In this document: positions 8,232 to 64,000 of the stretch, piece after piece
How positions within the stretch are numbered: the first letter of the stretch is position 1
How the letters are laid out: every line of letters begins with the position of its first letter
NCBI GenBank assembly: GCA_947650365.1
Contig: CANTAL010000207.1
Location: 62,001 to 126,000, forward strand
DNA length: 64,000 nucleotides
DNA from: Chamaelirium japonicum
Taxonomy: Eukaryota; Streptophyta; Magnoliopsida; Liliales; Melanthiaceae
Direction of reading: 5' to 3'
Position numbers and translations under genes: made by a program
The notes under the pieces: model-generated
What the model was told of the DNA's origin: nothing
The model's database searches: none
The model's input: the letters and a program-made list of their open reading frames with translations, nothing else

Positions 8232-8233
8232 AT

Positions 8234-21510: not shown

Positions 21511-21614
21511 CAAGTTGCATGAGCGAGTCGGGTTTGACCCGAAGGCTGTTGGGTGCGGGCCTATTTTTCGTGTAAAAATCGGGTTCGACCCGTGGGCTAA
21601 TTTCGATGCCCACA

Positions 21615-23195: not shown

Positions 23196-23225
23196 GAGAC
23201 CGGACTGTCAGTACTTCAGCTTCTG

Positions 23226-26200: not shown

Positions 26201-26282
26201 TCGGTCTTCAGAGTTGCAGCGCATGGAGGTTACTGACGGCGAGCTGCTCCATCGTCTCAAAGAACTTAATTCGCTTTACTAG
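23226..26282 (+). pseudogene. Antisense plant-mobile-domain gene of Gypsy 2
   Basis: Open segments 23226-23423, 23430-23948, 23982-25124, 25257-25754 and 25767-26282 form one gene of about 990 codons once an 85-base intron (25224-25308) is removed. The plant mobile domain is recognised by WCPETNTFLTGAGEIG and TLRDMHVISGCPEV near the start and by HYLYGWIGLHFSKGIF and GYLIWRRGD in the middle. The C-terminal 120 residues are a charged coiled coil. It is convergent with pol. Stops near 23421, 23946 and 25752 are TGA at positions that read CGA or another arginine codon in the Gypsy 1 copy, and a small deletion near 25090 shifts the frame. Genes of this kind are known extra ORFs in Tat-type elements; the role is not established. 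Confidence 0.85.
25224..25308 (+). other. GT-AG intron in antisense gene (Gypsy 2)
   Basis: GATGCTGCAG|GTATACC opens and TTTTGGCAG|GGTCTGCTGG closes an 85-base segment containing an in-frame stop. Joining GCA-G to GG-TCT keeps the frame, and the Gypsy 1 copy has the same intron. Confidence 0.8.
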
Positions 26283-26532
26283 CAATGTCGCATTTCCTTT
26301 TCTTTCTTGTCATTTTTGCTGAACAGACTTGTAGTTCTGTTTTTCTTTATCTGGTAATAACTTAATATCATGCATCTATTTTTTTTGGACTTGTCTTCTG
26401 GAATGGCAGAGGTTGGTTGTGTTTTTCTTTTGTTTGGATTGAACCTTTACAGGCTGCCTATGTACCCTACTGAGAGGGATCAAGTCACACGTAGTTCCTT
26501 TTTTTTTTTTTGGAAGGAAAGCAGCCCTGCTT
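26283..26532. other. Gap between convergent antisense gene and pol (Gypsy 2)
   Basis: About 250 bases with T runs and no gene, equivalent to 13371-13620 in Gypsy 1. Confidence 0.6.
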
Positions 26533-35698: not shown

Positions 35699-35707
35699 CT
35701 ATTTATA
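35699..35707 (-). promoter_or_regulatory. LTR TATA box, Gypsy 2 5' LTR
   Basis: TATAAATAG on the minus strand. This is the copy expected to drive gag-pol transcription. Confidence 0.7.
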
Positions 35708-36253
35708 GGCAAAGGGGGGCGGTTGGGGGAGATATTGCTGAAATCTTTTTGTTTCATCCAATATCTCCCCCCATAACCATCAAGATATTGTTCCCTCTTT
35801 CGGGGAAACAAACTCGATCCCCTCCTTTTTAGTTGGGGTGGTTACGGGCTAGATGTGACTCGATCTTTTAAAGATTGAGTTGTTATTCTTGTTGCACTTT
35901 TGGATCGGATGGCGACACAACGTCATCTTGTCGGTTGGATCGAGGGATCGTCGCGGATCTACGGCTACGTAGACGTCCACGCCACCTCCCCCCGCATCGA
36001 GGCGGTTTTGATTTCTTTTTCCTTTCTTTTCTTTTCTTTTCTTCTCTTTTTCTTTTTCTTTTTCTTTTCTTTTCTTTTTCTTTTAGGGCCGGCCCCACCT
36101 CTCCATGAGGAGGGGGGCACGGTTTTCTAGAAGAGGGGGCCGGTGGGCCCCCCTCTTTGTGTCCGAGTTGCGGGTCCGGTGGGACCCGTTTGCTTTGGGT
36201 CGGGCCATGGCGAGCAAATTGAGTTCGCACGTGGGCCGAGTTCGCACGCGGGT

Positions 36254-36475
36254 CGTTGTGTGCGGGCCGAGTTTCGCATACGGGCCGTTGTGTGCGGGCC
36301 GGGTTTCGCATACGGGCCGTTGTGTGCGGGCCGAGTTTCGCATACGGGCCGTTGTGTGCGGGCCGGGTTTCGCATACGGGCCGTTGTGTGCGGGCCGGGT
36401 TTCGCATACGGGCCGTTGTGTGCGGGCCGGGTTTCGCATACGGGCCATTGTGTGCGGGCCCAAGTTTCATGAGCG
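36254..36475 (-). repeat. 32-bp tandem repeats in Gypsy 2 U3 (5' LTR)
   Basis: Same seven-unit array as in the 3' LTR, here more uniform between units. Confidence 0.9.
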
Positions 36476-36564
36476 AGTCGGGTTTGACCCGAAGGCCGTT
36501 GGGTGCGGGCCTATTTTTCGTGTAAAAATCGGGTTCGACCCATGGGCTAATTTCGATGCCCACA

Positions 36565-43377: not shown

Positions 43378-43389
43378 CACTACAAGAAA

Positions 43390-44205
43390 TAGGGTCTTTA
43401 CCGACGGACATTATTATCACCGTCGGTAATAATACACTTTTTACCGACGGTGACAATAATATCCGTCGGTATTATAACTTCAATTTTTTTAATTTTCTGT
43501 GCATATTTATACCGACGGTATACATATTTACCGTCGGTAATATACTTTATACCGACGGTAACATATAAACCGTCGGCAAAATGTCATCGTCGTGATATTG
43601 TACCGACGGACATTGTAGTTCCGTCGGTATAAACAATGTTACCGACAGCTATAATATCTCCGTCGGCCATATACCGACGGTAATAAAATTTCCGTCGGTA
43701 ATATTGTCCCGACGAAACTCAGTGTAAAAACCGAGCCTCTGGAAAAAAATAGAAGGGAGAGTTTCGTCGTACTATTTACCGACGGACTTAAAAGTTCCGT
43801 CGGTATAACTAATTAGACCGACGGAAATTATATTTCCGTCGGCACTGTACCGACGGTAATTACGTTTCCGTCGGTAAAATGTTCCGACAGTTCTCAGGGT
43901 GCCAAACCGAGCCTCTGGGAAAAATTGAGCTTGAAGTTTGGTCGGGATTATACCGACGGAATTTATCTATCCGTCGGTATAATACCGACGGTAATTAAAT
44001 TGCCGTCGGTAAAATGTCCCGACAGTTCTCAGGGTGCCAAACCGAGCCTCTGGAAAAAATTGAACTTGTTTGTTAGTCGTGGAGTTTTACCGACGGACAT
44101 TAAGTATCCGTCGGTAAAAAGGTGGATTTGTACCGACAGATATTATTGTGCCGTCGATAAAAGATATTTTTACCGACGGAAGTAAAATTTACCGTCGGTA
44201 AAACG
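43390..44205. repeat. Left subterminal repeats
   Basis: About a dozen pairs of ACCGACGG followed 10-20 bases later by CCGTCGGT, each pair able to form a stem. A longer unit with GTGCCAAACCGAGCCTCTGG occurs three times (near 43720, 43900 and 44035). In En/Spm elements such motifs bind the TNPA protein and are needed for transposition. Confidence 0.92.
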
Positions 44206-44219
44206 CCTGCCATAAGTTA

Positions 44220-44535
44220 ATTTCAGCGATCCCCTCCTAGCCTTCTCTGTTCTATTTCGATCTGAAACTCTCCCCCGGCCCTCTCTCTCTCTCTAAATCT
44301 CCCCCCCATCTCCCCCCCTCCCCGGCCTCCCTCCCCCCCTCCCCGGCCCCGTCGCGTCCCTCCGGCCGACCGATCGACCGGCGGTTGGTGAGATCCGGCA
44401 TCCGTCGTCCCTCCTCCTCCTCGTGGGCATCCGTCGTCCCTCCTCGTCCTCGTGGGCTCCGGCCGGTGAGATCCTCCTCCTCCTCCTCCCCCCGGTGAGC
44501 TCCTCCTCCTCCTCCTCCTCCTCCTCGTGGGTGAT
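44220..44535 (+). promoter_or_regulatory. Pyrimidine-rich leader, likely 5' region of TNPD
   Basis: CT- and CTC-rich sequence right after the subterminal repeats, where CACTA elements start transcription. I see no clear TATA box. Reading frames on the minus strand come from the (GAG)n composition. Confidence 0.45.
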
Positions 44536-44551
44536 CATTGATGTGTGGTAG

Positions 44552-45102
44552 CAGTGGCGGAGCCAGAAATTCACTCCAGTGGGGGCAACCTTTGCTTGGC
44601 TTTAAAAGTTTTATCCAATTTCTACTAACAAAGGATTTGAATGGACTACAAAAAAATTCCGCTTTCAGTTCATAGGCATGCAAAAATCTCCCATTGAAAA
44701 AAATATTACACAAAAAATCGTGAATAACTATCTAGAGAGGGAGAGAAAGAGAAAGAGAAAGAAATGGCTCCCTAAAGTTTGAAATGTTAGCATATACACC
44801 CTTTTGTCAACTATTTTATTTTCTCATTTGGTAATCTTTTATCTGATGAAAACTTAATTGAAAGGGTTAAAATGTAGTTCTTAAACTATTGGGGGGTTAA
44901 GTGTCTTTCAGCTAAACTTCAGTGGGCAAAGTGTACTACTCATTGACAAATCAGACCCATCAGATCTCTGAACCAACTCCACTTCATTGGTTGATTATCA
45001 ACGTGTTGTTGACACTGTACAAATAGCATTAGTTTTTTTTTTTTTTTGCTAATCTCAGTGGGGGCAGCTGCCCCCACTGGGCCTATATTGGCTCCGCCTC
45101 TG
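44552..45102. mobile_element. hAT-type MITE, 551 bp, inside the CACTA leader
   Basis: Ends CAGTGGCGGAGCC and the inverse of CAGAGGCGGAGCC, flanked by an exact 8-bp duplication TGTGGTAG (44544-44551 and 45103-45110). A further sub-repeat AGTGGGGGCA lies near both ends. No coding sequence. Confidence 0.9.
44763..44938. mobile_element. Decayed relative of the 37969-38220 MITE, nested
   Basis: Shares GGTTAAGTGTCTTTCAGCTAA, AAACTTCAGTGGGCAAAGTG and TCTCATTTGGTAATCTTT with that MITE. Its ends are eroded. Confidence 0.55.
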
Positions 45103-45110
45103 TGTGGTAG

Positions 45111-46129
45111 TTGTTTAATAGTTGGGACCGCGGTCAACTAGCTCGAGATGTGCGCGTGCCATGCACCCGAACTGTACGTGCCTTTGTAGAACCAAACAAA
45201 CGATCCAAAATCAAGACCAGGAAGCCCGTACCACCGGTCACAATGAGGGGCGCACCTGAGTCTGAATCAGGGTTGAGTCAAGCATCAGACTCTGGCTGAA
45301 TATTTGGCTCACCAAGGCCAAGTAGGTCCACTTGGACGGCCAAACATCTGACGCCCTCGTACAAGAGCCAATTTGTTGGTGGACTCAGACCTATGACCTC
45401 TAGAATGCACGACAAACCAACCGCAATGGAAGGTTTACTTTTCACCCCCAACCTCTAACCTGAATACCTAACCAGAATGGCGTGTCATCCAATCACAGCC
45501 TGCCAATTGGGGTTTTGTGCAACGGACGGCTGTGATCGGGACGCATCATTATGGTTAAAAGAAATTAAAATTTTTTTTTTCCCAAGAAAGGACAAGAGCA
45601 TTTTTACTTCCCGACTGGTACACTGTACTTGCTTATGGCTCAATCGGGACGGTCCATGTGGATCATTTAAACGTGAATAACAGGTGCAGCAAGTGTGCAG
45701 CCAATGTTGTTCCCGTTTAATTTTGAACCCAAAAGGATGCTATCAAGGGCTGTTGGTTAAGCCAAGCAACTCTGGATATGTCCCAAACGCATATGGCTAA
45801 CTGGGTTTGTACGTAAGTGGTCTTAATTAAGCTAGAGACGACTCATGAGCATAGTTAAGCAGCTCGACAGTCAGGTCATGGTCACAGGGAATGCCTAGCT
45901 AGATGTTAGATAACTATCTTACCCAAAAGCTTAAGATGGTCACGTGATATCAGAGTTTTGGTTTCTGCGAGGTCCTAGGTTCAAATTATGTTGCCTCCAT
46001 TTGTTAATTTCAGTATTACCCCATCTATTTAATTCTCCACCTACCCGGGAACCGAAACCGAAATTGTGCGGAGTCTTATAACATTGTTTGAAATTATATG
46101 TCAGGTGTTGTATAGCCAGATAGACGAAG
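45111..46129. other. Region between the MITE and the transposase start
   Basis: No gene recognised. Probably leader and/or first intron of the transposase gene plus its promoter-proximal sequence. A weak tRNA-like B-box, GGTTCAAAT, occurs near 45970. Confidence 0.4.
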
Positions 46130-49100
46130 ATGTCTTCGATCGATAAGAGTTGGATGCGTAATTCGAATCGCATGAGCCAAGAGTACAGAGAAGGAGTCAG
46201 GAAATTTCTGGATTTTGCATTTGAGCGTCTTGCACCGCTTGATGGAAAAATTGTGTGTCCCTGTATAGACTGCGGAAGGGTGATTAGGAAGGTTCGAGAG
46301 GAATGTGAGGTTGATCTGGTAATGCGTGGCATTGACGTTACCTATACCCGTTGGTTCTCGCACGGTGAGGAGCTAGATGCAGTCCCCATGGCAGCTCACG
46401 GTGAAACTTCAAACACAGTGATCGCTGATGATAATATTAATACAGACGATGACGATGACATGCAGGGTATGATACATGATTTGCAAGGTGGAATAGGCAC
46501 GGAAACACCGTCAGGTGATCAGCCCAATATCGAAGCGGACAAGTTCTACAGATTGCTTAAAGATGCCGAACAACCTCTATACCCGGGGTGTGAGAAGTTT
46601 TCAAAACTCTCTTTCACTGTAAAGCTTCTTCATTTGAAGTGCCTCAATGGTTGGAGTAATAAGTCATTTAATATGTTGGTAGAGTTGCTGAAAGAGGCTT
46701 TTCCTATGGGTGAGACAGTACCGAAATCATTCTACGAGGCGAAGAAGACAATTAAAGATCTCGGTCTGGGTTATGAGAAAATTGATGCATGCGTGAACGA
46801 TTGTATGTTGTACCGGAAAGAGTACGAACATGCGCGGTCATGCCACATATGCGGAGCAACGAGATATAAAGAGACGGATGCCGAGTCTAGTACCAGTCGA
46901 AGGAAGAAAAATGTATCTGCAAAGGTTCTCCTATACTTCCCGCTCAGGGACAGGCTTCAGAGGTTGTTTATGTCATCGAAGACTGCTGAGCACATGAGGT
47001 GGCATGCACGAGAACGTACAGATGACGGGATTATGAGACATCCGGCCGACTCTCTGACGTGGAAAGATTTTGATCATACATATCCTGAATTCGCATGTGA
47101 AGTTCGCAACGTCAGGTTAGGGCTTGCTAGCGATGGCTTCAATCCCTTTGGGAATATGAGTGTGTCGTACAGCATTTGGCCAGTTGTCCTAGTTCCATAC
47201 AATTTGCCTCCCTGGATGTGCTTAAAAAAGCCATACACAATGCTCTCCTTGCTCATTCCCGGACCCAGGTCGCCTGGTAATGATATTGACGTTTACTTGC
47301 AGCCGTTGATTGAGGAGTTGAACGAGTTATGGGAAGTTGGGGCCGATACGTATGATGCCTCGTTGCGCCAGAATTTTCGGATGCATGCGGCACTTCTATG
47401 GACCATCAACGATTTTCCTGCATATGCCAACTTATCCGGGTGGAGTACTAAAGGAAAATTGGCGTGCCCTACATGCAATAAGGAGACAGATTCATTACGA
47501 TTGAAGAACGGAGGCAAGTTCTGTTATATGGGCCATCGAAGATTCCTTGTTGACGGCCATAAGTGGAGGCAGAACAAAAGAGCTTTCAACGGCAAGAAGG
47601 AACTTGCAAAGGCCCCGGAGCAGCTTTCGGGGGTAGAAGTCTTGTGCGAATTGGATCAGCTTGATGCCGTGGCACTTGGAAAAGGTAAAAAGAAGAGAAC
47701 GCATGAAGATTCAACGCGTGAGCATAACTGGAAGAAGAAGAGTATTTTCTTTAAACTACCGTACTGGAGCAGCCTACTCTTGCGGCATAACTTGGATGTC
47801 ATGCATATTGAGAAAAATGTGTGTGACAACATTATAGGAACACTGCTGAATCTCGACGGTAAGACGAAGGATAATCTTAAATCTCGTCTCGATCTTAAGG
47901 AGTTGGGCATCCGAAAATCACTTCATCCCCAAGAGATTGGGGATAAGTATGTGTTGCCAGTTGCATGCTACACCATGAGCTCACAGCAAAAGGCAGCCTT
48001 ATGTGCATTCCTACGGTCTGTGAAAACGCCAGACGGTTATTCTTCGAATATCGCACGATGCGTGCAAGAGAACGGCCGGAAGTTGTCTGGATTAAAGAGC
48101 CACGATTGTCATGTTCTTATGCAGCGATTGTTATCTCTTGCTATACGTGGGAATTTAACCGAAGAGGTGTCCGGTCCGTTAATTGAGCTCAGCACTTTTT
48201 TCAGACAGTTGTGCTCGAAGGTACTTAGAGTGGACCAACTTGAACAGATGGAGAGGGATATTGCGCTCACATTGTGCAAGTTAGAGATGATATTTCCACC
48301 TTCATTCTTTGATGTCATGGTGCATTTGACCGTTCACTTGGCAAATGAGGCCAAACTCGGCGGCCCAGTTCATTACCGGTGGATGTATTTTATCGAGAGG
48401 TAATCGTCTCGTCTCATTCGCACAATGTATTTGATCGTTCTTGATATATTCATACAAATATTTTTTTCTCAAATTAGGTACTTGCGAACATTGAAATCAT
48501 ATGTTCGTAATAAAAGTCGTCCGGAGGGATCAATTGCTGAAGGATACCTAGCAGAAGAATGTCTAACATTCTGCTCAAGATACCTACATGGTATAGACAC
48601 GCGATTCAATCAACTTGAGCGGAACTATGACGGTGGTCCAATAGACTTCGATGGGGGTCTGTCTATATTTGCCGAAATGGGTAGACCTGTAGGAGGAGGC
48701 AAAACCCGTCGATTGTCTGTAGATGAGATTCAACAGGCACATATGTATGTGTTGCGCCAATGTGATGAAGTGTGGCCATTCATTGAGTAAGCATTTTACG
48801 ATCATTTACTCATTCTTTCAGTCCATTCATTAAGTATATGTGCTAATTATAATCTAATTCATAACCGGTAAAACAGGAAGCATAAAGCCATCATTAATAA
48901 TCGGGGTATTCGAAATGCTCCCCAAATTCATGATCGTGAATTCCCATCGTGGTTCGAGAAACACGTAAGTATTCACATCATTACTGAATTTCATTGACAT
49001 CCATTACCGAACAATAATTATGTGTTCATATCATGAATGTCGTGTGGTTATTATAGGCACAGGAGCTGCACGACAACCACGATCCGCTGATGAATGAGGA

Positions 49101-49731
49101 TCTCTGGCGCTTATCTTGTAGTCCTTTGCAAGACGCAATATCGTACGATGGTTATATCGTGAACGGTTATAGATTTCGGACGAAAGATAGTGAAAAATCA
49201 CGAAGAACCCAAAATAGTGGGGTTGTCGTCAACGGTGAGCAAGAAGAATTAGAAAATATCGACTTCTACGGCGTCCTCAACGAGATTCTCGAGATTAAAT
49301 TCCTTGGCCAAAATCGGATCGTATTATTCAAATGCGATTGGTATGATGTTAATAATCGCGGGACTGGTTATAATGTCGACAAATACGGTTTTATCAGCAT
49401 CAACACTGCCAAGAGATTGAATACCCAATATGAAGATCCATTCATTCTTGCCTCTCAAGCGCAACAGATATTTTATGCACCGGATAATACCTCTCCAGGT
49501 TGGCAAATTGTAGTCAGGTCACCACCCAGAGATTTTTACGACATGGGAGACAAGGATGCGGGGGTCGTCGATGATGATTTGGATGCATACCAGAATGATG
49601 AGATAATCATTGTCGACGCAGTGCACGACGAAAATGAAGATGTCGACAATATAAACTGGACAGCGAATGCAGATCAAATAATAGAAGAGGGAAGCGATGA
49701 GAGTGACAGAGATGAGACAGAAAATGACTAG
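46130..49731 (+). CDS. TNPD/TNP2-type CACTA transposase
   Basis: Exons 46130-48399, 48478-48786, 48877-48964 and 49057-49731 join in frame to 1113 codons; every intron is GT-AG. The N-terminal transposase-associated domain has SWMRNSNR and the CPCIDCGR zinc-like motif. The TNP2 core (about residues 250-620) has FPAYANLSGWSTKGKLACP and the family signature DVMHIEKNVCDNIIGTLL. The first intron cuts a DUF4218-type region (MVHLTVHLANEAKLGGPVHY then YLRTLKSYVRNKSRPEGSI). A DUF4216-type domain (FYGVLNEILEIKF, near 955-1020) and an acidic tail follow. It excises and inserts the element by binding its ends together with the TNPA product. No stop or frameshift is seen. ATG choice rests on the family N-terminus; an upstream non-coding exon is possible. 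Confidence 0.92.
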
Positions 49732-49911
49732 ACCGTATGTAAATCAAATTGTTTCATATTTAAATCAAATTGTTTCATATATAAATCATATTGTTTCATA
49801 TGTATATCATATTGTTTCATATGTAAATCATACCGTTTCACCGATTCATATGTAAATCATACCGTTTCATATGTAAATCATACCGTTTCACCGATTTACG
49901 ATCCGACCGAT
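49732..49911 (+). repeat. 21-bp tandem repeats after the transposase gene
   Basis: Repeats of GTTTCATATGTAAATCATA, about 21 bases each. The same motif reappears at 50836-51004, so the left satellite array is embedded between two blocks of it. It is likely 3' untranslated or intergenic sequence. Confidence 0.85.
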
Positions 49912-50835
49912 TCACCGATTTAGAGTCTAAGAGTTGGAAAATCATAAGTTAGCGTGTTTCGGATATGAAATAGGTTTGGATTCGATCGGATCGTCATCGG
50001 ATCGGCATCCGATAATTCGAAGTTGGATTTATTCCGTATTTCGGACTTGCGAGCGGGTTCTAATTGGATATTTGACCAATTTACGCTCCGATTCATCGAT
50101 TTAGAGTCTAAGTGTTGGAAAATCATAAGTTAGCGTGTTTCGGATATGAAATAGGTTTGGATTCGATCCGATCGTCATCGGCTCGGCATCCGGTAATTCG
50201 AACTTGGAATTATTCCGTATTTCGGACTTGCGAGCGGGTTCTAATTGGATATTTGACCAATTTACGCTCCGATTCACCGATTTAGAGTCTAAGTGTTGGA
50301 AAATCATAAGTTAGCGTGTTTCGGATATGAAATAGGTTTGGATTCGATCGGATCGTCATCGGATCGGCATCCGGTAATTCGAAGTTGGAATTATTCCGTA
50401 TTTCGGACTTGCGAGCGGGTTCTAATTGGATATTTGACCAATTTACGCTCCGATTCACCGATTTAGAGTCTAAGTGTTGGAAAATCATAAGTTAGCGTGT
50501 TTCGGATATGAAATAGGTTTGGATTCGATCCGATCGTCATCGGCTCGGCATCCGGTAATTCGAACTTGGAATTATTCCGTATTTCGGACTTGCGAGCGGG
50601 TTCTAATTGGATATTTGACCAATTTACGCTCCGATTCACCGATTTAGAGTCTAAGTGTTGGAAAATCATAAGTTAGCGTGTTTCGGATATAAAATAGGTT
50701 TGGATTCGATCCGATCGTCATCGGATCGGCATCCGATAATTCGAACTTGGAATTATATTCCGTATTTCGGACTTGCGAGCGGGTTCTAATTGGATATTTG
50801 ACCACTTTACGATCCGATTAACCGATTTAGAGTCT
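49912..50835 (-). repeat. Left 181-bp satellite array, about five monomers, minus orientation
   Basis: Monomers repeat every 181 bases (reading-frame ends at 49920, 50101, 50282 and 50463). They are the reverse complement of the array at 52788-56616. Two variants alternate (GGATCGGCATCCG and GGCTCGGCATCCG), giving a 362-bp dimer period. It lies in the intergenic space between the two transposon genes. The repeated 68-codon frames are by-products of the repeat. Confidence 0.95.
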
Positions 50836-51004
50836 AACTGTTTCATATTGTTTCATATTGTTTCATATTGCGAGCGGGTTCATATTGTTTTATATTGTTT
50901 CATATGTAAATCATACTGTTTCATATGTAAATCAAACTGTTTCATATTGTTTCATATGTAAATCTTAAATCTTACTGTTTCATATGTAAATTAAATTGTT
51001 TCAG
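50836..51004 (+). repeat. TTTCATATG-type repeats upstream of TNPA-like gene
   Basis: ACTGTTTCATATGTAAATC and shorter TTTCATATTG units, related to 49732-49911. The stretch ends TTTCAG directly before the ATG at 51005, which also looks like a splice acceptor, so a leader intron is possible. Confidence 0.8.
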
Positions 51005-52704
51005 ATGGCATCACGGTCATATGTTCGTAGAGGCAGAGGCAGAGGCAGGGGTAGGGTAGCTGAGAGCGCTCCGGCTGCCACCCCAGGGTCCGAGGCTGAG
51101 CCGTCCGGATCTGGTAGTGCTGTTCCTCTCTCCACACCAGCTCCTGCTGTGGTCGCAGCCTCCGGAGCTTCGAGCACTGCTCAGCACTCGGCTGCAGCGT
51201 CTACGCCCACAGGTAATGTTTAGATCTAAAGTTTTATACATGTTGTAAATACTTCTTCAGTACTGATGTATATTTTATTTGCAGGGTCGACCAGGTACGT
51301 AGGCGACCGGGGCGTGACGACGGCCCGGCGCTTGTCGGCCTTACGCGAGCCGCTGTCCCTACAGTGGAGCGGCCATACCTTTGTGGGCGAGCACGCTTCT
51401 GACGCCGCCACGTGGGTCGGCATGATAGTACGGGAGGAGAGGAATGCCCCGATTGTGGGGTTAAGGGGGTGGAAGAACATTGATGCATCCTATAAGGAGA
51501 GGATGTATCAGCAGTTTTTGGTACGTTAGTTTCATTAAAGCATTTTAGAATAATATCGTACTTCTTTATAATTTGATTTGATAAAATGACTTGTTTCTAA
51601 ATTGATTTTGCAGGAGAAATTTAAATGGGAGAACATGGAAACCGACACCCATCGGGAGGACTTGTGGAAGACGATGGGTGAGCGGTACAGGGATTACCGT
51701 CACGAGCTCTACAAGCTCTACGGTTACTTGGTCGGCCAGCCGGCTGAGGAGGTACAGGCTGCGGCTGGGACGAGAGACGCGCCACCGCTACACATTCTAC
51801 AGTTTTTGGTCGCTCACTGGGCCACCCCTAACTTTCAGGTATAATTATAATTTTGTTGATTCGTACTTGTTTTAATGTTATACTAAAAATTTGTATTGAT
51901 GTTTCAAAATTTAATCGATTGCACAGAATAAATCTGCTATAGGCAAGCAGAATAGAAGTGCCTCGACGACACCTGCTCCAGTGAAGGGGAGGACCTCCAT
52001 GCCCCAGCTTGCCCAGCAGCTGGTAAATGATACAAACATTGTTATTATTTAAAGCTCTATACATGTTATATTAACTCGTCTATTTATTTTATATGTCCAA
52101 CAGACACAGTCCTTGGGCCACGAGCCTAATAGGATTGACCTTTTTGAGGCCTCTAGGAGGCGGCGTGTCGATGGGGCATTTCTGGACGACAGGGTTGCCT
52201 CGCAAGTGGTAAGTAATTAAATTACTGTTAATATATTCTTATACATATGCCATAAAATATCATTGAATATCATTGGTTGCTTTTATATAGGAGAGGATGC
52301 GACTTCTGGTGACCCCGTCGGGCGAGGCCGGCTCCTCCTCCAGCTCAGTATCTGTCGACTCAGCGATGGATACTGTGCTGAGACCTGCCACGCACGGCCG
52401 TGTCCTCTGTACGGGCCTTGGAGTCACGCCCTCCTCCTACTTTGGACGAGAGGGTATGCGCTCGAGGGCACGGGACACCCAGACCGGTGCTATCACTCAG
52501 CTGCAGTCTGCGCTAGACGCGGAGCGAGAGCAGAGGCAGGCCCTCGAGCAGAGGATGGAGGTAGAGCGAGAGCAGAGGCAAGCCCTCGAGCAGAGGGTTG
52601 AGGCGGAGAAGAAGGCCCTCGATGAGGAAAGACAAGCTCGCAGGGAACTGGAGCGTAAATTTAATGAATTCATAAGCCGGTCTAGCGGTGGCTCATCCTC
52701 ATGA
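51005..52704 (+). CDS. TNPA-like CACTA second gene (plant transposase Ptta/En/Spm type)
   Basis: Exons 51005-51212, 51285-51520, 51614-51838, 51927-52022, 52104-52208 and 52291-52704 have GT-AG borders and join in frame to 427 codons. The N-terminus is basic and Ser/Ala/Pro rich (RRGRGRGRGR). The central part (about residues 75-230) resembles the Transposase_24 family (RNAPIVGLRGWKNIDASYKE; LYKLYGYLVG). The C-terminus is a coiled coil with a repeated EREQRQALEQR. In En/Spm the TNPA protein binds the subterminal motifs and pairs the ends. No stops in the spliced frame. It lies between two inverted satellite arrays, 169 bases after the left array and 83 before the right one. Confidence 0.88.
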
Positions 52705-52787
52705 TCAGGTACTTACTAATCTTTATAATATTAGCAAAAAATATGAATCTTACTAATTTGAGTTTAGATCATATTATCACATTTATG

Positions 52788-55700
52788 ATTTTCCAACACT
52801 TAGACTATAAATCAGTAAATCGAATCGTAAATGGTCTCTCTTTCTCTCATGGTAATGATGTAGCCTCTGTTTTTCTTTTAAATACGGAATAATTCCAAGT
52901 TCGAATTACCGGATGCCGATCCGATGACGATCGGATCGAATCCAAACCTATTTCATATCCGAAACACGCTAACTTATGATTTTCCAACACTTAGACTCTA
53001 AATCGGTGAATCGGACCGTAAATTGGTCAAATATCCAATTAGAACCCGCTCGCAAGTCCGAAATACGGAATAATTCCAACTTCGAATTACTGGATGCCGA
53101 TCCGATGACGATCGGATCGAATCCAAACCTATTTCATATCCGAAACACGCTAACTTATGATTTTCCAACACTTAGACTCTAAATCGGTGAATCGGAGCGT
53201 AAATTGGTCAAATATCCAATTAGAACCCGCTCGCAAGTCCGAAATACGGAATAATTCCAACTTCGAATTACCGGGTGCCGATCCGATGACGATCGGATCG
53301 AATCCAAACCTATTTCATATCCGAAACACGCTAACTTATGATTTTCCAACACTTAGACTCTAAATCGGTGAATCGGAGCGTAAATTGGTCAAATATCCAA
53401 TTAGAACCCGCTCGCAAGTCCGAAATACGGAATAATTCCAACTTCGAATTACCGGATGCCGAGCCGATGACGATCGGATCGAATCCAAACCTATTTCATA
53501 TCCGAAACACGCTAACTTATGATTTTCCAACACTTAGACTCTAAATCGGTGAATCGGAGCGTAAATTGGTCAAATATCCAATTAGAACCCGCTCGCAAGT
53601 CCGAAATACGGAATAATTCCAAGTTCGAATTACCGGATGCCGAGCCGATGACGATCGGATCGAATCCAAACCTATTTCATATCCGAAACACGCTAACTTA
53701 TGATTTTCCAACACTTAGACTCTAAATCGGTGAATCGGAGCGTAAATTGGTCAAATATCCAATTAGAACCCGCTCGCAAGTCCGAAATACGGAATAATTC
53801 CAACTTCGAATTACCGGATGCCGATCCGATGACGATCGGATCGAATCCAAACCTATTTCATATCCGAAACACGCTAACTTATGATTTTCCAACACTTAGA
53901 CTCTAAATCGGTGAATCGGAGCGTAAATTGGTCAAATATCCAATTAGAACCCGCTCGCAAGTCCGAAATACGGAATAATTCCAACTTCGAATTACCGGGT
54001 GCCGATCCGATGACGATCGGATCGAATCCAAACCTATTTCATATCCGAAACACGCTAACTTATGATTTTCCAACACTTAGACTCTAAATCGGTGAATCGG
54101 AGCGTAAATTGGTCAAATATCCAATTAGAACCCGCTCGCAAGTCCGAAATACGGAATAATTCCAACTTCGAATTACCGGATGCCGAGCCGATGACGATCG
54201 GATCGAATCCAAACCTATTTCATATCCGAAACACGCTAACTTATGATTTTCCAACACTTAGACTCTAAATCGGTGAATCGGAGCGTAAATTGGTCAAATA
54301 TCCAATTAGAACCCGCTCGCAAGTCCGAAATACGGAATAATTCCAAGTTCGAATTACCGGATGCCGAGCCGATGACGATCGGATCGAATCCAAACCTATT
54401 TCATATCCGAAACACGCTAACTTATGATTTTCCAACACTTAGACTCTAAATCGGTGAATCGGAGCGTAAATTGGTCAAATATCCAATTAGAACCCGCTCG
54501 CAAGTCCGAAATACGGAATAATTCCAACTTCGAATTACCGGATGCCGATCCGATGACGATCGGATCGAATCCAAACCTATTTCATATCCGAAACACGCTA
54601 ACTTATGATTTTCCAACACTTAGACTCTAAATCGGTGAATCGGAGCGTAAATTGGTCAAATATCCAATTAGAACCCGCTCGCAAGTCCGAAATACGGAAT
54701 AATTCCAACTTCGAATTACCGGGTGCCGATCCGATGACGATCGGATCGAATCCAAACCTATTTCATATCCGAAACACGCTAACTTATGATTTTCCAACAC
54801 TTAGACTCTAAATCGGTGAATCGGAGCGTAAATTGGTCAAATATCCAATTAGAACCCGCTCGCAAGTCCGAAATACGGAATAAATCCAAGTTCGAATTAC
54901 CAGATGCCGAGCCGATGACGATCGGATCGAATCCAAACCTATTTCATATCCGAAACACGCTAACTTATGATTTTCCAACACTTAGACTCTAAATCGGTGA
55001 ATCAGAGCGTAAATTGGTCAAATATCCAATTAGAACCCGCTCGCAAGTCCGAAATACGGAATAATTCCAAGTTCGAATTATCGAATGCCGAGCCGATGAC
55101 GATCCGATCGAATCCAAACCTATTTCATATCCGAAACACGCTAACTTATGATTTTCCAACACTTAGACTCTAAATCGGTGAATCGGAGCGTAAATTGGTC
55201 AAATATCCAATTAGAACCCGCTCACAAGTCCGAAATACGGAATAATTCCAACTTCGAATTACCGGATGCCGATCCGATGACGATCGGATCGAATCCAAAC
55301 CTATTTCATATCCGAAACACGCTAACTTATGATTTTCCAACACTTAGACTCTAAATCGGTGAATCGGAGCGTAAATTGGTCAAATATCCAATTAGAACCC
55401 GCTCGCAAGTCCGAAATACGGAATAATTCCAACTTCGAATTACCGGGTGCCGATCCGATGACGATCGGATCGAATCCAAACCTATTTCATATCCGAAACA
55501 CGCTAACTTATGATTTTCCAACACTTAGACTCTAAATCGGTGAATCGGAGCGTAAATTGGTCAAATATCCAATTAGAACCCGCTCGCAAGTCCGAAATAC
55601 GGAATAAATCCAAGTTCGAATTACCGGATGCCGAGCCGATGACGATCGGATCGAATCCAAACCTATTTCATATCCGAAACACGCTAACTTATGATTTTCC

Positions 55701-56616
55701 AACACTTAGACTCTAAATCGGTGAATCGGAGCGTAAATTGGTCAAATATCCAATTAGAACCCGCTCGCAAGTCCGAAATACGGAATAATTCCAAGTTCGA
55801 ATTATCGAATGCCGAGCCGATGACGATCCGATCGAATCCAAACCTATTTCATATCCGAAACACGCTAACTTATGATTTTCCAACACTTAGACTCTAAATC
55901 GGTGAATCGGAGCGTAAATTGGTCAAATATCCAATTAGAACCCGCTCACAAGTCCGAAATACGGAATAATTCCAACTTCGAATTACCGGATGCCGATCCG
56001 ATGACGATCGGATCGAATCCAAACCTATTTCATATCCGAAACACGCTAACTTATGATTTTCCAACACTTAGACTCTAAATCGGTGAATCGGAGCGTAAAT
56101 TGGTCAAATATCCAATTAGAACCCGCTCGCAAGTCCGAAATACGGAATAATTCCAACTTCGAATTACCGGGTGCCGATCCGATGACGATCGGATCGAATC
56201 CAAACCTATTTCATATCCGAAACACGCTAACTTATGATTTTCCAACACTTAGACTCTAAATCGGTGAATCGGAGCGTAAATTGGTCAAATATCCAATTAG
56301 AACCCGCTCGCAAGTCCGAAATACGGAATAAATCCAAGTTCGAATTACCGGATGCCGAGCCGATGACGATCGGATCGAATCCAAACCTATTTCATATCCG
56401 AAACACGCTAACTTATGATTTTCCAACACTTAGACTCTAAATCGGTGAATCGGAGCGTAAATTGGTCAAATATCCAATTAGAACCCGCTCGCAAGTCCGA
56501 AATACGGAATAATTCCAAGTTCAAATTACCGGATGCCGAGCCGATGACGATCGGATCGAATCCAAACCTATTTCAAAATCGAAACACGCTAACTTATCAT
56601 TTTTTAACGCTTAGAC
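52788..56616 (+). repeat. Right 181-bp satellite array, about 21 monomers, higher-order organised
   Basis: Full monomers start at 52976 and every 181 bases to 56415; a first, interrupted one begins near 52788. Monomer landmarks are ATGATTTTCCAACACTTAG, GCGTAAATTGGTCAAATATC, CCCGCTCGCAAGTCCGAAA and CCTATTTCATATCCGAAACA. Sequence variants recur every fourth monomer (724 bp), five times in a row. Most monomers are near identical, so amplification is recent. The final monomer degrades after 56570. Confidence 0.97.
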
Positions 56617-56624
56617 TCAGTTAT

Positions 56625-56870
56625 AGATATAAACCATTTTTTTAACAAATACATGTTAATTGCAGGAGCAGGGCGGCGTCAGGGGATCGATGAGAGCACC
56701 AGCGTTGGTGGTGGGCGGGCGTGGTTGAGATAGGGCGGCGTCAGGGGATCGATGAGAGCACCGGCGTTGGTGGCGGGCGGGGGTGGTTGAGATAGGACAT
56801 GTATCATCTCTCAGTTCTGGATTGTGTAAATATTGTTTTGTAATATATGGTTATTTTTTCTTCTATCTAT
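56625..56870 (+). repeat. 62-bp duplication downstream of the right array
   Basis: GGGCGGCGTCAGGGGATCG recurs at 56671 and 56733 with the bases between. A TTGCAG before it looks like a splice acceptor, so this may be a 3' terminal exon or untranslated region. A diverged single copy is at 62456-62571. Confidence 0.75.
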
Positions 56871-56888
56871 AATTGTCGGCCGGGAACT

Positions 56889-57030
56889 GTGGTAATATTT
56901 GATAATTTGCTGTAATTTTTTATCAATTTAGGTAATATTTTATAAATTGTGGTAATATTTGATAAATTGTGGTAATATTTGATAAATTGTGGTAATATTT
57001 GATAAATTGTGGTAATATATTGTGGTATTG
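56889..57030. repeat. 20-bp tandem repeats
   Basis: ATAAATTGTGGTAATATTTG repeated with period 20, four to five good copies and decayed ones to the left. Confidence 0.88.
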
Positions 57031-57084
57031 AATCACAGGAATTAAATAACATTATTTAGGTAAATTTATTAAAAAAAAAAAGAT

Positions 57085-57575
57085 ACTTATTACCGACGGA
57101 AATGAATTATTCCGTCGGTAATAATATTTTTATTTTTTTTAAATTATTAATGATTTGCCGACGGCATATAATATCCGTCGGTAATATATATAGTATTACC
57201 GACGGGTAATATATATATCCGTCGGTAATATATATAGTATTACCGACGGTGATATTAATTTGGTCGGTAATATATATATTATTACCGACGGGTAATATAT
57301 ATATTTGTCGGTAATATATATAGTATTACCGACGGATTCTTATAGTTCGTCGGCAATACTATATTATATTAGTTTTAAATTTGTTAAATATTACCGACGG
57401 CGTTCTAATTACCGTCGGTATTAATTATTAATACCGACGGTAATATTTGGTCCGTCGTATTGTTTTCCCCGACGCCTTTTTTCCCGACAGCCAGCGACGG
57501 AAATATCTTCCGTCGCTATATAATATTACCGACGAAATTTTAATATTACCGACGGATATTGTCCGTCGGTAATAA
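57085..57575. repeat. Right subterminal repeats of the CACTA element
   Basis: Many ACCGACGG / CCGTCGGT pairs, mirroring the left end, with AT-rich spacers (TAATATATATAG). Confidence 0.92.
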
Positions 57576-57595
57576 CTGTTTTTTTTGTAGTGCCC

Positions 57596-57684
57596 TTAGG
57601 CCCTTGTCGGGTAGGGCTTTAGAGGAGTTTGGAGGACCGAGCCGGGCAGGATACCCTCTCCAAAGAGCCAGATTGACAGGCCTA
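57596..57684. mobile_element. Right part of the MITE split by the CACTA element
   Basis: Ends ATTGACAGGCCTA, the inverse of TAGGTCTGTCAA at 42742. It follows the CCC duplication of the CACTA insertion. Confidence 0.55.
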
Positions 57685-57692
57685 CTGACAAT

Positions 57693-58175
57693 AGGTCATC
57701 ATTTTAGTTAAAGAGAGGAGAGAGAAAGAGGTGAGTTGTTCCACAATGGACATTTGAAAAAAATAGTGCAATCAGATTTCCATGATGAGTTATAATTATA
57801 CAACATATTTATTACAAGTAGTGACACAGGGTTTACAACTCACTAGGTTTAGAGCAACTCCAGCCCATACTCAAAATTTTACTCAGATCTGAGTAAAAAC
57901 TCAATCTGATAGAATGATGATAGGATTCCCCTTGGGAAACTCAAAATGAAGAGACTTTTTGACGTGAGTAAGGAACCCAATAGTTCAGTGAATCGATCGC
58001 CTGATTGCGACGGCACCCTGCACACTACAACCCATTCTAGGAACCATTTGGTTCCATTTCACCATTGTGAGGGAGTTAAAGAAGGGGCAAAGGGAACGTC
58101 CTCTGCGGTACCAAGTTCAAAATCCTCTGTCACCTGCGGATACCAACGATATTTTGGAAATCTATCGTGACACTT
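57693..58175. other. Anonymous DNA
   Basis: No gene recognised; a 74-codon frame at 57946-58170 has no recognisable feature. AGAGCAACTCCAGCCC near 57853 resembles a MITE end but no partner was found. Confidence 0.4.
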
Positions 58176-58284
58176 ATTCAGGTACTTACTAATATTTATA
58201 ATATTAATATAAATTATGCAACTTACTAAAATTGCTAGTCAGAATATCTACTAAAATTGCTAGTCAAAATATTTTACTAAAACA

Positions 58285-61200
58285 TGCTGACTTTTGATTT
58301 TCCAACGCTTAGACTCTATATTAGTCAATCAGAGGATAAATTCTTAAATATCTACATAAAACTTGCTCGCAAGTCTGAAATACGAAAAAACATCCAAGTC
58401 CGAATTATCGGATACGATCGAATGACGATCCCATCGAATCAAAGCCAAGTTTAAAATCCCAAGCACGCTAACTTATGATTTTCCAATGCTTAGACTCTAA
58501 ATTAGTCAATAGAAAGGAATAATCTTAAAATATCTACCAAAAACTTGTTCATAAGTCCGAAATACGAAAATACATCCAAGTCTGAATTATAGGATGCGAT
58601 CCGATGACAATCCAATCAAATCCAAACCAAGTTTAAAATCCAAAACATGCTAACTTATGATTTTTCAACGCTTAGACTCTAAATTAGTCAATCAGAGGGT
58701 AAAATATTAAAATATCTACTTAAAACTTACTCGCAAGTCCAAAATACGAAAAAACATCCAATTCTGAATTATCGAATACGATCCGAGGACGATCCCATCG
58801 AATCCAACCCAAGTTCAAAATCCAAAACACGCTAACTTATGATTTTTCAATGCTTAGACTCTAAATTAGTCAATCTGAGGGTAAATTCTTAAAATATCTA
58901 CTTAAACTTGCTTACAAGTTCAAAATATAAAAAAAATATCCAAGTCCAAATTATCGGATGCGATCCGATGACGATCCTATCGAATCCAAACCAACTTCAA
59001 AATCTGAAACACGCCAACTTATGGTTTTCCAACGCTTAGACACTAAATTAGTCAATCCGTGGGAATATTCTTAAAATATCTACTAAAAACTTGCTCGCAA
59101 GTCCGAAATATAAAAAAGCATCCAAGTTCGAATTATCGAATGCGATCCGATGACGATCCGATCAAATCCAAACCAAGTTCAATATCCAAAACATGCTAAC
59201 TTATGATTTTCCAACGCTTAGACTCTAAATTAGTCAATCGGAGGGTAAATTCTTAAAATATCGATTTAAAACTTGCTCGCAAGTTCGAAATATAAAAAAA
59301 CATCTAAGTCTGAATTATCGGATGCGATCTGATGACAATCCCATCGAATCCAAACCAAGTTTAAAATCCGAAACACACTAACTTATGTTTTTCAACACTT
59401 AGACTCTAAATTAATTAATCTTAGGGTAAATTTTTAAAATATCTACTTAAACTTGCTCGCAAGTCCGAAATATGAAAAAACATCCAAATCAGAAATATCG
59501 GATGCGATCCGATAACGATCCTATCGAATCCAAATCAATTTCAAAATCCAAAACACGCTAACTTATGATTTTTCAATGCTTAGACACTAAATTATTTAAT
59601 CTGAGAGAATAGTCTTAAAATATCTACTTAAAACTTGCTTGCAAGTCCGAAATATGAAAAAACATTCAAGTCCAAATTATCGGATGTGATCCGATGACGA
59701 TCCGATTAAATCCAAACCAAGTTCAAAGTCCGAAATACGCTAACTTATGATTTTCCAACGCTTAGACTCTAAATTAGTCAATCGGATGGTAAATTCTTAA
59801 ATATCTACTTAAAATTTGCTCGCAAGTCTAAAATACAAAAAAACATCCAAGTTCGAATTATTGGATGTATGATGATCCCATCAAATCCAAAACACGTTAA
59901 GTTATGATTTTTCAACGCTTAGACTCTAAATTATTCAATAGGAGAGAATAATCTTAAAATATCTACTTAAAACTTGCGCACAAGTTCGAAATATAAAAAA
60001 CATCCAAGTCTGAATTATCGGATGCAATCCGATATATGACGATTCGATCGAATCCAAATCAAGTTCAAAATCTGAAACATGCTAACTTATGATTTTCCAA
60101 CGCTTAGAATCTAAATTAGTCAATCGAAGGGTAAAATCTTAAAATATATATCTACTTAAAACTTGCTTGCAAGTCTAAAATATGAAAAAACATCTAAGCC
60201 TGAATTATCATATGCAATCCGATGACTATCCCATCGAATCCAAACCAAGTTCAAAATTCGAAACACGCTAACTTATGGTTTTTCAACGCTTAGAATCTAA
60301 ATTAATTAATCGAAGGGTAAAATCTTAAAATATCTATTTAAAATTTGCTTGTGAGTCCGAAATATGAAAAAACATCAAAGTTCAAATTATCACGATCCGA
60401 TCGAATCTAAACCAACTTCAAAATCCAAAACACGCTAACTTGTGATTTTTCAACACTTATACACTAAATTAATCAATTGGAGGGTAAATTCTTAAAATGT
60501 CTACTTAAAACTTGCTCGCAAGTTCGAAATACGAAAAAACATCCAAGTCCAAATTATCGGATATATGACGATCCCATCAAATCCAAACCAAGTTTAAAAT
60601 CCGAAACACGCTAACTTATGATTTTCCAGCGCTTAGACTCTAAATTAGTAAATAGGAGGGAATAATCTTAAAAAATTTACTTAAAACTTGCTCGTAAGTT
60701 CGAAATACGAAAAAAATATCCAAGTTCGAGTTATCGGATGTGATCCGATGACGATCCGATCGAATCCAAATCAAGTTCAAAATCCGAAACATGCTTCTTA
60801 TGATTTTTCAATGCTTAGACTCTAAATTAGTCAATCGAATGGTAAAATCTTAAAATATCTATTTAAAACTTACTCGTAAGTCTGAAATATAAAAAAACAT
60901 CTAAGTCCGAATTATCGGATATGATTCGATGATGATCCCATCGAATCCAAACTAAGTTCAAAATCTAAAACACGCTAACTTATTATTTTTCAACGCTTAG
61001 ACTCTATATTAGTCAATCGGAGGGTAAAATCTTAAAATATATTTTAAAAATTTGCTCGCAAATCCAAAATATGAAAAAACACCAAGGTCTGAATTATCAC
61101 GATCCGATGATGATCCGATCGAATCCAAACCAACTTCAAAATCCAAAACCCACTAACTTGTGATTTTTCAACGCTTAGACTCTAAATTAATCAATCGGAG

Positions 61201-62110
61201 GGTAAATTTTAAAATATCTACTTAAAACTTGCTCTGAAGTCTAAAATATGAAAAAACATCTAAGCACGAATTATCGGATGCAATTCGATGATGATCCGAT
61301 CGAATCCAAACCAAGTTCAAAATCCAAACACGCTAACTTATGATTTTCCAATGCTTAGACTCTAAATTAGTCAATTCGAGGATAAATTTTTAAAATATCT
61401 ATTTAAAATTTGCTCGCAAGTCCGAAATATGAAAGAACATCTATGTCCAAATTATCGGATGTAATCCGATAACGATCCCATCGAATCCAAACCAAGTTTA
61501 AAATCCGAAACACGCTACCTTATGATTTTTTAACGCTTAGACTCTAAATTAATCAATCGAATAGTAAATTCTTAAAATATCTACTAAAAGTTGCTCACAA
61601 GTTCGAAATATGAAAAAAACATTCAAGTCTGAATTATCGTATGTGATCTGATGACGATCCCATCGAATCCAAACCAACTTCAAAATCAGAAACATGTTAA
61701 CTTATGATTTTTCAACGCTTAGACTCTAAATCAGTTAATCGGAGGGTAAAATCAAAAAATATCTACTTAAAACTTGCATGCAAGTCCAAAATACGAAAAA
61801 ACATCCAAGTCCGAATTATCAGATGCGATCCGATAATGATCCGATCGAATCCAAACCGAGTTCAAAATCTAAAACACACTAATTTACGATTTTTCAACGC
61901 TTAGACTCTAAATTAGTCAATCGAAGGATAAAATCTTAAAATATTTACTTATAAATTGCTCCTAAGTCCGAAATACGAAAGAACATCCAAGCCCGAATTA
62001 TCATATGCGATCCGATAACGATCCAATCGAATCCAAACCAAGTTCAAAATTCGAAACATGCTAAGTTATGATTTTCAAACGCTTAGACTCTAAATTAGTC
62101 AATCGGAGGG
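58285..62110 (+). repeat. Diverged satellite array, about 22 monomers of about 180 bp
   Basis: Landmarks CTAACTTATGATTTTCCAAC, GCTTAGACTCTAAATTAGTC, CTTGCTCGCAAGTCCGAAAT and GATCCGATGACGATCC recur about every 180 bases from 58290 to 62060. Same orientation as the right array of the intact CACTA element but with many substitutions and small indels, hence much older. I see no higher-order period. Confidence 0.9.
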
Positions 62111-62455
62111 TAAAATCTTACCTGAAATATTTGGTAAAAAATCAAATCTAGCGGCTCGAAGGGGAAGGAGGGAGGCGGCGATCTTACCGACTGTTTGGAT
62201 GATCGCCCCCCTATTTACGTGATCTATTGGGCAAGTCGAATGTGGGGAGCATGAATTTGTAGGGGGGGGGAGCGTGACGGGGGGAGTTTGAAAAAGGAGA
62301 AAATCTATAATATAATGGTGATGCCACCTCAGTAAATATCATGGTAGATCACACGCTGGAGCACCATTCAGCACCACTACAACTGATTCATAACCACATG
62401 ATTTAATCACCACAAAAATACATTGCACTAAGCCCCAACTGCATCATGTTATATA
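62111..62455. other. Unassigned stretch within the decayed CACTA relative
   Basis: No counterpart in the intact element and no gene. It has a G-rich run near 62250 and AT-rich sequence after it. Confidence 0.4.
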
Positions 62456-62571
62456 TATAGATGTAAACTATTTTTTTAATAAATACATGTTAATTGAAGG
62501 TTGTGTGGCGTCAAGGGATAAGAGCACCAGTGTTGGTGCCGGGTGGCGTGAGGGGTGGTTGAGCTAGGTAT

Positions 62572-64000
62572 TGTAGCGCGTGTGTCCTTAGCGTGGATTT
62601 TCTGTATTAACATTAATAAAGATGACTTTGGTTATTTTTTTAATTAGAATACTACTCTGGTATATGATAATACTTATATAATAAAGGACCCTAGGGAACA
62701 TAGTAGACCACTGAGGCACATTGTGGATCCATGCTTGGGAGACCCAGTGGACCAGTTATGTGTATACCTAGAACTAGTTCACGGCTTAGGCGATGCAGGT
62801 CGCTTCACCGAAAATAAGCTGTTGGCAGGTAGAGGATGTGGTGAAGTCTCCACCACGGGAACATGGGATTCCCATTCACCTGACCAAGCATGATGATCGT
62901 GTTGAACAGGAACCAAGATGGTGCACAGTTCAGTGATTCAGACACTGGTGCAGAAACCGTCTTACTACTATAGATAATATATCCTTAACCCTGAGAGACC
63001 ATGTTCACTGGGCCAACCAGTTGTGTGGTACTTTGATGTGCCAACGTGTGTGGACCTTCCATAGTCCAATACCATAGTATGTTAGGTTACCCGGCTAGCG
63101 CTTGAGTGACATATAATCCCTACAGGTTATCCGATGTCCAGTGTTGGATGGGTGCGCTTTGATGAGTCAATATGTCCACACAATTAACCCAGGCCTGGTG
63201 GTTGTCAGTATGACTGACGACATTCCGGATGATAGGCATAACACCAGAAGGTGTGTGGTGTTATAGATAACAAGTCATCAAACCCTAGTCAGATGATCGA
63301 TCGGGATCTGACGGTGCTCCCCATCGCCCGAGTCGTATCATGGCACCAGTAATAGGAGGGACTTAAGGATTATCGAAGTATAGTAGAGAACAGGGATACG
63401 AGGAAGTAACATAAGTTTAGGATCACTAAAGTTCAACTTGCGTCGCACTCTAGGTGGCTACGCGGGTTAATCGGATTAGGACTGATTAATGGAACTTTCG
63501 GTGTGTCACCGGAACAGTTAATTAGGGATCCAGTTGGAGCTAGAGATCCCGAACCCTGAAGGTTCTATCCTGTCGTTGCGTATAGGAATTGTTCCCCGAC
63601 CTTATTGGATACGTTGGATGCAAAGTAGCGCGATAGAGCGCAAGCCCGGAGCCTAAGGACCTAATTCACATGTGTTACGGGTCGTAGGGGTATTTTGGTA
63701 AATATTAAAATATGTCTCAAAACATATTGAATATGGATCTTAGAATGAGCGGAATAATTCTAGGAGCTCACAGGCGCTGATGGACCTCGATTCCGAGTAG
63801 CGCACCTCACTCAGTTTCTCTTTCAGTTTTCCACTTTTTGTGAAGGACGTTTTCGCCCAGGTTTCACGATAGACACTTGGAATCCCTAAAAACTGCCCAC
63901 TCTCTATCCTAATCTATCTAGGGCCGGCCCTAGCTTCCTTGAAGCCATGGGGGACCGGCCCTATAAGTAGAATAGGGAGAGGGAGGGCCGGCCCAATGTG
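62572..64000 (+). repeat. Third copia LTR, plus orientation, cut by the window end
   Basis: Starts TGTAGCGCGTGTGTCCTTAG and follows the reverse complement of 356-2311 to the window edge. It retains the segment lost from 8234-10133. Whether it is a solo LTR or the 5' LTR of another element cannot be seen. Confidence 0.9.

What the first reader, a model, noticed from the sequence alone, without database searches (positions are those of the whole stretch)
49912..56616. CACTA transposon carrying 181-bp satellite arrays on both sides of its TNPA-like gene
The satellite is inside an element bounded by CACTA termini and a CCC duplication, so it moves with the transposon. The monomer length (181 bp) is that of a nucleosome plus linker, like many centromeric or heterochromatic satellites. 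Together the arrays make up about a third of the element. A transposon that carries such a satellite could seed new satellite loci in the genome.
Basis: partly seen in the sequence, partly recalled or inferred. Interest (0 to 1): 0.88.

Follow-up and report, generated by a model that had tools for sequence, protein, structure and literature searches.

The report
Jumping gene carrying satellite DNA arrays
An apparently intact plant jumping gene of the CACTA type carries two facing blocks of a 181-letter tandem repeat around one of its own genes, and an older relic beside it has a related repeat in the same place, so the repeat has probably travelled with this transposon for a long time; satellite-carrying CACTA elements are already known, but this paired layout looks unusual.

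Summary
The CACTA element is 43378-57592 (14,215 bp, CCC duplication) with intact-looking TNPD and TNPA genes; the finding's coordinates cover only its arrays and TNPA. The 181-bp arrays (5.2 and 20.7 copies) make up 33% of it. Its consensus is 84% identical to the young one and its flanks 76-87%, so the satellite probably descended with the element family rather than invading one copy. Most likely it is a passively carried resident satellite, homogenised in the young copy and decaying with methylation-type mutations in the relic. Satellite-bearing CACTA elements are published (Chenopodium quinoa; links in Arabidopsis and Triticeae), so this is a new variant of a known kind. Only two copies were seen; genome-wide abundance was not tested because the genome search did not complete.

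The parts
43378..57592 (+). complete CACTA (En/Spm superfamily) element, 14,215 bp, TSD CCC
43378..44300 (+). 5' terminus and subterminal ACCGACGG/CCGTCGGT repeats
46130..49731 (+). TNPD-like transposase gene, 4 predicted exons, 1113 aa (Transposase_21, DUF4218, DUF4216, Transpos_assoc)
   Evidence: splice sites picked by hand
49907..50842 (+). left 181-bp satellite array, 5.2 copies, between TNPD stop and TNPA start
51005..52708 (+). TNPA-like gene, 6 predicted exons with coding sequence, 427 aa, Transposase_24 (PF03004)
   Evidence: splice sites picked by hand
52709..56665 (+). predicted 3957-bp intron in the TNPA 3' UTR (TCAG|GTACTT ... TTGCAG|GAGC)
   Evidence: inferred from GT-AG sites, no transcript data
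52880..56618 (-). right 181-bp satellite array, 20.7 copies, inverted relative to the left array, 4-monomer higher-order repeat
57050..57592 (+). 3' subterminal repeats and inverted CACTA terminus
58178..58229 (+). relic copy: splice donor and 5' end of the array-bearing intron, 86.5% to 52705-52756
58279..62120 (-). relic satellite array, about 21.4 diverged copies of 182 bp, same orientation as the right array
62456..62568 (+). relic copy: intron 3' end and 3' exon, 76.5% to 56622-56734 (acceptor CAG reads AAG), cut off by LTR-like sequence

Best explanation
This is an apparently autonomous CACTA element whose family has carried a 181/182-bp satellite as a resident non-coding component since before the young copy and the neighbouring relic diverged. 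Shown by sequence: two inverted arrays flank the TNPA-like gene, and the array downstream of TNPA sits between homologous flanks in both copies. Inferred: the large array lies in a 3' UTR intron and the small one in the first intron or the spacer before TNPA, where extra length is tolerated. Unequal exchange creates the dimer and tetramer patterns, and gene conversion (or a past inverted duplication) keeps the two arrays alike. Transposition carries the arrays to new sites; once a copy is silenced, its array stops being homogenised and decays by methylation-type mutation. The satellite is mainly a passenger.
For: Arrays lie inside CACTA termini with TSD CCC. Both reading frames are open with hand-picked GT-AG introns removed and have the expected Pfam domains. 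The relic array is bounded by an 86.5% match over 52 bp (E 5.9e-10) and a 76.5% match over 119 columns (E 5.1e-17) to the segments that bound the right array. Consensus of relic (17 of 20 intervals used) against young: 84.2% over 183 columns, between the two flank values, as expected if array and flanks diverged together. L01 = L03 = R04 = R08 over 181 bp although the arrays are inverted. Lag-4 identity in the right array is 99.3% against 97.7-98.3% at lags 1-3 and 5-7, 20 monomers. Array edges are degenerate and interiors uniform. The 3' edge of the right array has the relic-type base at 3 of 4 diagnostic sites against 13 of 520 in 20 interior monomers. Relic decay: 157 of 280 changes are C>T or G>A; at CpG 80 of 404, at other C/G 77 of 745.
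Against: Only two copies were seen. The relic shows no CACTA terminus in the window: 57596-58177 has no match to the element or its two proteins and its right side is cut by LTR-like sequence, so it is called a CACTA relic only through its flanks. The intron has no transcript support, and at 59% AT it differs from the five coding introns (75-79% AT). The 3-of-4 edge result rests on four sites; the other three edges gave 1 of 8, 0 of 8 and 0 of 10. Whether the satellite also exists free in the genome is unknown.
Confidence: 0.7

Rival explanations
1. A host satellite, abundant elsewhere in the genome, was captured by the family; the element is only one of its homes, as proposed for the 171-bp satellite in Chenopodium quinoa CACTA elements.
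For: The monomer has no convincing source inside the element or the rest of the window (hits of 12-17 bp, E 0.79 or worse), so an outside origin is possible. In C. quinoa the authors favour capture, and a 74% similar satellite exists in C. sosnowskyi without link to CACTA elements (PMC8978399, passages).
Against: Shared position in two diverged copies and similar divergence of array and flanks point to one early acquisition rather than repeated invasion. These data do not speak to the ultimate origin.
Confidence: 0.2
2. The inverted arrays are functional: a pre-mRNA spanning TNPD, TNPA and both arrays folds into a long hairpin that is diced into small RNAs, so the element silences or tunes itself and its relatives.
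For: The arrays form an inverted match of 957 columns at 97.3%. A possible splice acceptor TTTCAG lies directly before the TNPA ATG, and of three poly(A)-like hexamers searched between TNPD stop and TNPA start only one ATTAAA was found, at 50990. Spm/En and Tgmt* make TNPA-type transcripts by skipping the transposase region (PMC2613891, passages).
Against: No RNA data. Inverted orientation in one element can be chance, and the left part of the relic is not preserved in the window, so conservation of the inverted pair is untested.
Confidence: 0.1
3. The left array is a recent inverted duplication of a few monomers of the right array and not an old partner (not exclusive with the best explanation, which concerns mainly the right array).
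For: L01 and L03 are identical to R04 and R08, and the L01-L02 pair differs from R04-R05 at one site.
Against: Both edges of the left array are degenerate, which suggests residence in place for some time; gene conversion explains the identical monomers equally well.
Confidence: 0.3
4. The array copy numbers or the inverted arrangement are assembly artefacts.
For: Identical monomers (R02 = R06 = R10 = R14 = R18) are hard for short-read assembly.
Against: Both arrays have degenerate edges on both sides, and the right array has an ordered tetramer pattern with variants that an artefact would not easily create. No reads were available.
Confidence: 0.05

Closest known systems
CACTA element of Chenopodium quinoa with a 171-bp satDNA array (Jozin type; PMC8978399, outline, abstract and passages seen)
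   Same: CACTA element of similar size (16,523 bp) with a nucleosome-length satellite array (5,550 bp, 32.5 copies) between the coding part and the 3' end; the array was found in elements on four scaffolds.
   Different: One array, not two inverted ones; no intron placement in the passages seen; monomer unrelated to ours (score reached or beaten by 287 of 300 shuffles).
Atenspm2 and the Ensat1 satellite of Arabidopsis (seen as a table row in PMC6947457 and a cited sentence in PMC7320549)
   Same: En/Spm-like element whose internal region is linked to satellite arrays.
   Different: Original paper not seen; sequence not compared.
CficCl-61-40 satellite of Chenopodium, derived from the tnp2 domain of a CACTA element (PMC7320549, passages seen)
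   Same: CACTA element as a source of satellite DNA.
   Different: Monomer of about 40 bp derived from transposase coding sequence; here no coding origin was found.
Wheat and barley satDNAs with EnSpm/CACTA homology (PMC10827815, PMC11447152, passages seen)
   Same: Satellites partly or wholly matching CACTA sequence.
   Different: In the wheat table rows seen the EnSpm-matching monomers were 335 bp or longer; gene structure of the element is not described in the passages seen.
Tgmt* of soybean, 20.5-kb CACTA with mosaic TNPA-like transcripts (PMC2613891, passages seen)
   Same: Transposase gene followed by a DNA-binding-type part in one complex transcription unit.
   Different: No satellite array mentioned in the passages seen.

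Membership tests
CACTA (En/Spm) superfamily | terminal inverted repeats beginning CACTA | tested here: met
   43378 and 57592
CACTA (En/Spm) superfamily | 3-bp target-site duplication | tested here: met
   CCC on both sides
CACTA (En/Spm) superfamily | subterminal repeat clusters at both ends | tested here: met
   37 of 39 window copies of ACCGACGG or its reverse complement lie in the two ends
CACTA (En/Spm) superfamily | tnp2-type transposase | tested here: met
   PF02992, E 3.7e-102
CACTA (En/Spm) superfamily | second gene, TNPA-like | tested here: met
   PF03004, E 5.6e-17; binding to the subterminal repeats not tested
CACTA (En/Spm) superfamily | present-day transposition | not testable with these tools
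   needs other accessions or excision assays
Satellite-carrying CACTA elements (C. quinoa kind) | tandem array of satellite-length monomers inside the termini | tested here: met
Satellite-carrying CACTA elements (C. quinoa kind) | array present in several copies of the family | tested here: inconclusive
   one complete element and one relic identified by its flanks only
Satellite-carrying CACTA elements (C. quinoa kind) | homologous monomer (not needed for the kind, only for common descent) | tested here: not met
   no similarity above shuffles
Centromeric satellite | CENH3 association and long arrays at centromeres | not testable with these tools
   no chromatin data; genome search unanswered
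Centromeric satellite | CENP-B-box-like motif (recalled; not universal in plants) | tested here: not met
   0 matches in the window, 0.62 expected by chance

The most novel reading that the evidence does not exclude
The paired, inverted, intron-borne satellite arrays are a conserved regulatory part of this CACTA family: read-through transcripts fold the arrays into a long hairpin whose small RNAs set the silencing state of the family, and gene conversion keeps the two arms matched because they must pair.
Probability: 0.08. Interest if true: 0.75.

Novelty: new variant of a known kind. Interest (0 to 1): 0.42.

Why it matters
How satellites originate and spread is an open question. Here a nucleosome-length satellite with a higher-order pattern sits in an apparently intact DNA transposon, and a relic whose decay can be measured stands 0.6 kb away. 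The two stages can be compared directly: homogenised in the young element, frozen and decaying in the fossil. The inverted pair around TNPA also gives a concrete small-RNA test.

Tried and rejected
Origin of the monomer from the element's own genes or subterminal repeats: only hits of 12-17 bp, E 0.79 or worse, in the window with its three arrays masked. Sub-monomer periodicity: best self-offset 0.354, below the 95% shuffle limit of 0.365. A conserved box shared by young and relic consensus: longest difference-free run 27, P 0.21. CENP-B-box-like motif: 0 matches, 0.62 expected. The relic's left neighbour as a degraded TNPA exon: no tblastn match there at E up to 10. Protein relatives of TNPA: the 7,992 candidates sharing most words were scored and none reached E 0.001; I guess that the collection holds few plant proteins, and the other two searches were not spent. 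Monomer strings in the paper library: 4 strings of 19-20 letters, 0 papers. Paper searches used: 10 of 10; nothing in the listings, or in the passages of the 11 papers that I opened, describes a CACTA element with paired inverted satellite arrays. Most subscription papers are not held, and supplements were not open to me.

Full report
Observation. The window is plant-like DNA (inferred from its transposon content; the species is not known to me). A complete CACTA element runs from 43378 to 57592. Its ends are the 2 perfect matches among 6 hits to CACTACAANAAA allowing one mismatch and are flanked by CCC. Subterminal motif copies cluster at its two ends: 21 of 23 ACCGACGG and 16 of 16 CCGTCGGT. 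The TNPD-like gene (46130-49731, 4 predicted exons, 1,113 aa) has Transposase_21, DUF4218, DUF4216 and Transpos_assoc domains. The TNPA-like gene (51005-52708, 6 predicted exons, 427 aa) has Transposase_24. With GT-AG introns that I picked by eye, neither coding sequence has an internal stop, so the element may be autonomous; there is no transcript evidence.

Arrays. Tandem Repeats Finder reports 181-bp arrays at 49907-50842 (5.2 copies) and 52880-56618 (20.7 copies), 4,675 bp or 32.9% of the element. They are in opposite orientation: the left array matches the right one in reverse over 957 columns at 97.3% (best of six hits listed, 97.0-97.3%). Among 24 complete monomers (20 right, 4 left) 17 of 181 sites vary. 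The right array is a tetramer higher-order repeat: R02, R06, R10, R14 and R18 are identical. L01 and L03 are identical to R04 and R08. Mean identity at lag 4 is 99.3%, against 97.7-98.3% at lags 1-3 and 5-7; the truncated last unit was left out of this table. Edges of both arrays are degenerate while interiors are uniform, the usual picture of unequal exchange in place (established knowledge).

Position in the gene. The TNPA stop codon is followed after four bases by a donor (TCAG|GTACTT, 52708/52709), and the array is followed by an acceptor (TTGCAG|GAGC, 56665/56666). The right array would therefore lie in a 3,957-bp intron of the 3' UTR, while the five coding introns are 72-93 bp. Against this, the long intron is 59% AT and the five others 75-79%. 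The left array lies between the TNPD stop and TNPA. TTTCAG directly before the TNPA ATG is a possible acceptor, and of three poly(A)-like hexamers searched in between only one ATTAAA was found, at 50990. By analogy with Spm/En and Tgmt*, whose TNPA-type transcripts skip the transposase region (PMC2613891, passages), the left array may lie in the first TNPA intron. Both assignments are inferences.

The relic. Outside the element, 58279-62120 holds about 21.4 copies of a 182-bp repeat in the orientation of the right array. On its left, 58178-58229 matches 52705-52756 (86.5%, E 5.9e-10); on its right, 62456-62568 matches 56622-56734 (76.5%, E 5.1e-17). These are the two ends of the predicted intron and the start of the 3' exon. 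The donor is preserved and the acceptor CAG reads AAG. The relic consensus was built from 17 of 20 intervals; 3 with lengths of 157, 167 and 364 were dropped. It is 84.2% identical to the young consensus over 183 columns, with 26 substitutions and 3 gap columns, between the two flank values. Relic monomers are about equally different from each other at all lags from 1 to 12 (means 83.5-85.2%) and 9.1% from their consensus; 157 of 280 changes are C>T or G>A, at CpG 80 of 404 and at other C/G 77 of 745. This is what a methylated, no longer homogenised array would show (inference; no methylation data). The 3' edge of the young array carries the relic-type base at 3 of 4 diagnostic sites, against 13 of 520 in the 20 interior monomers, of which 8 are at one site that varies within the young array. 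The other edges do not show this: 1 of 8, 0 of 8 and 0 of 10; three inner stretches gave 1 of 22, 1 of 12 and 2 of 17. The relic has no CACTA terminus in the window: nothing in 57596-58177 matches the element at E 0.001 in blastn or its two proteins in tblastn, and the right side ends in LTR-like sequence at about 62568.

Interpretation. Two copies that differ by about 14-24% share the satellite between homologous flanks, so it was probably acquired or born before they split and has descended with the family. It does not answer where the satellite came from, since the monomer has no convincing source elsewhere in the window, nor how abundant it is in the genome, because the genome search did not answer in 14 tries. 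There is no sign that the relic seeded a growing satellite locus.

Comparison. CACTA elements that carry or give rise to satellites are known: a 171-bp array near the 3' end of C. quinoa elements (PMC8978399), CficCl-61-40 from tnp2 and a cited Arabidopsis En/Spm case (PMC7320549), Atenspm2/Ensat1 (PMC6947457, a table row), and CACTA-related satellites in wheat and barley (PMC10827815, PMC11447152). The C. quinoa monomer is unrelated to ours. The features that I did not meet in the passages seen are the two inverted arrays around TNPA, exact monomer sharing across the inversion, the tetramer order, and the predicted intron placement kept in a diverged relic. I rate it a new variant of a known kind.

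Verdict. Observation confirmed with corrected coordinates; interpretation partly supported. Interest 0.42.

Noticed in passing
44552-45102: A hAT-like short inverted-repeat element (TIR CAGTGGCGGAGCCA / CAGAGGCGGAGCCA, 8-bp duplication TGTGGTAG on both sides) is inserted upstream of TNPD inside the CACTA element.
   Followed up: partly
49736-49896 and 50839-51003: A 21-bp AT-rich minisatellite (unit like TATGTAAATCATATTGTTTCA) flanks the left satellite array on both sides; its unit ends in TTTCA, like the possible acceptor before the TNPA start.
   Followed up: no
56670-56796: A 62-bp tandem duplication (95% matches) lies in the predicted TNPA 3' exon; the relic aligns to either copy.
   Followed up: no
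58279-62120 and 52880-56618: Relic and young array have nearly the same copy number (21.4 and 20.7); with two copies this may be coincidence or a length limit.
   Followed up: no
1-2311, 7878-10133, 62568-63998: Related LTR-like sequences: direct repeats at the window start (95-96%) and an inverted copy (90-92%) that cuts off the relic.
   Followed up: no
10133-16855 and 23042-29775: A 6.7-kb inverted duplication at 88.5% identity, and a 2.1-kb direct duplication 19515-21614 / 34465-36564 at 98.2%.
   Followed up: no
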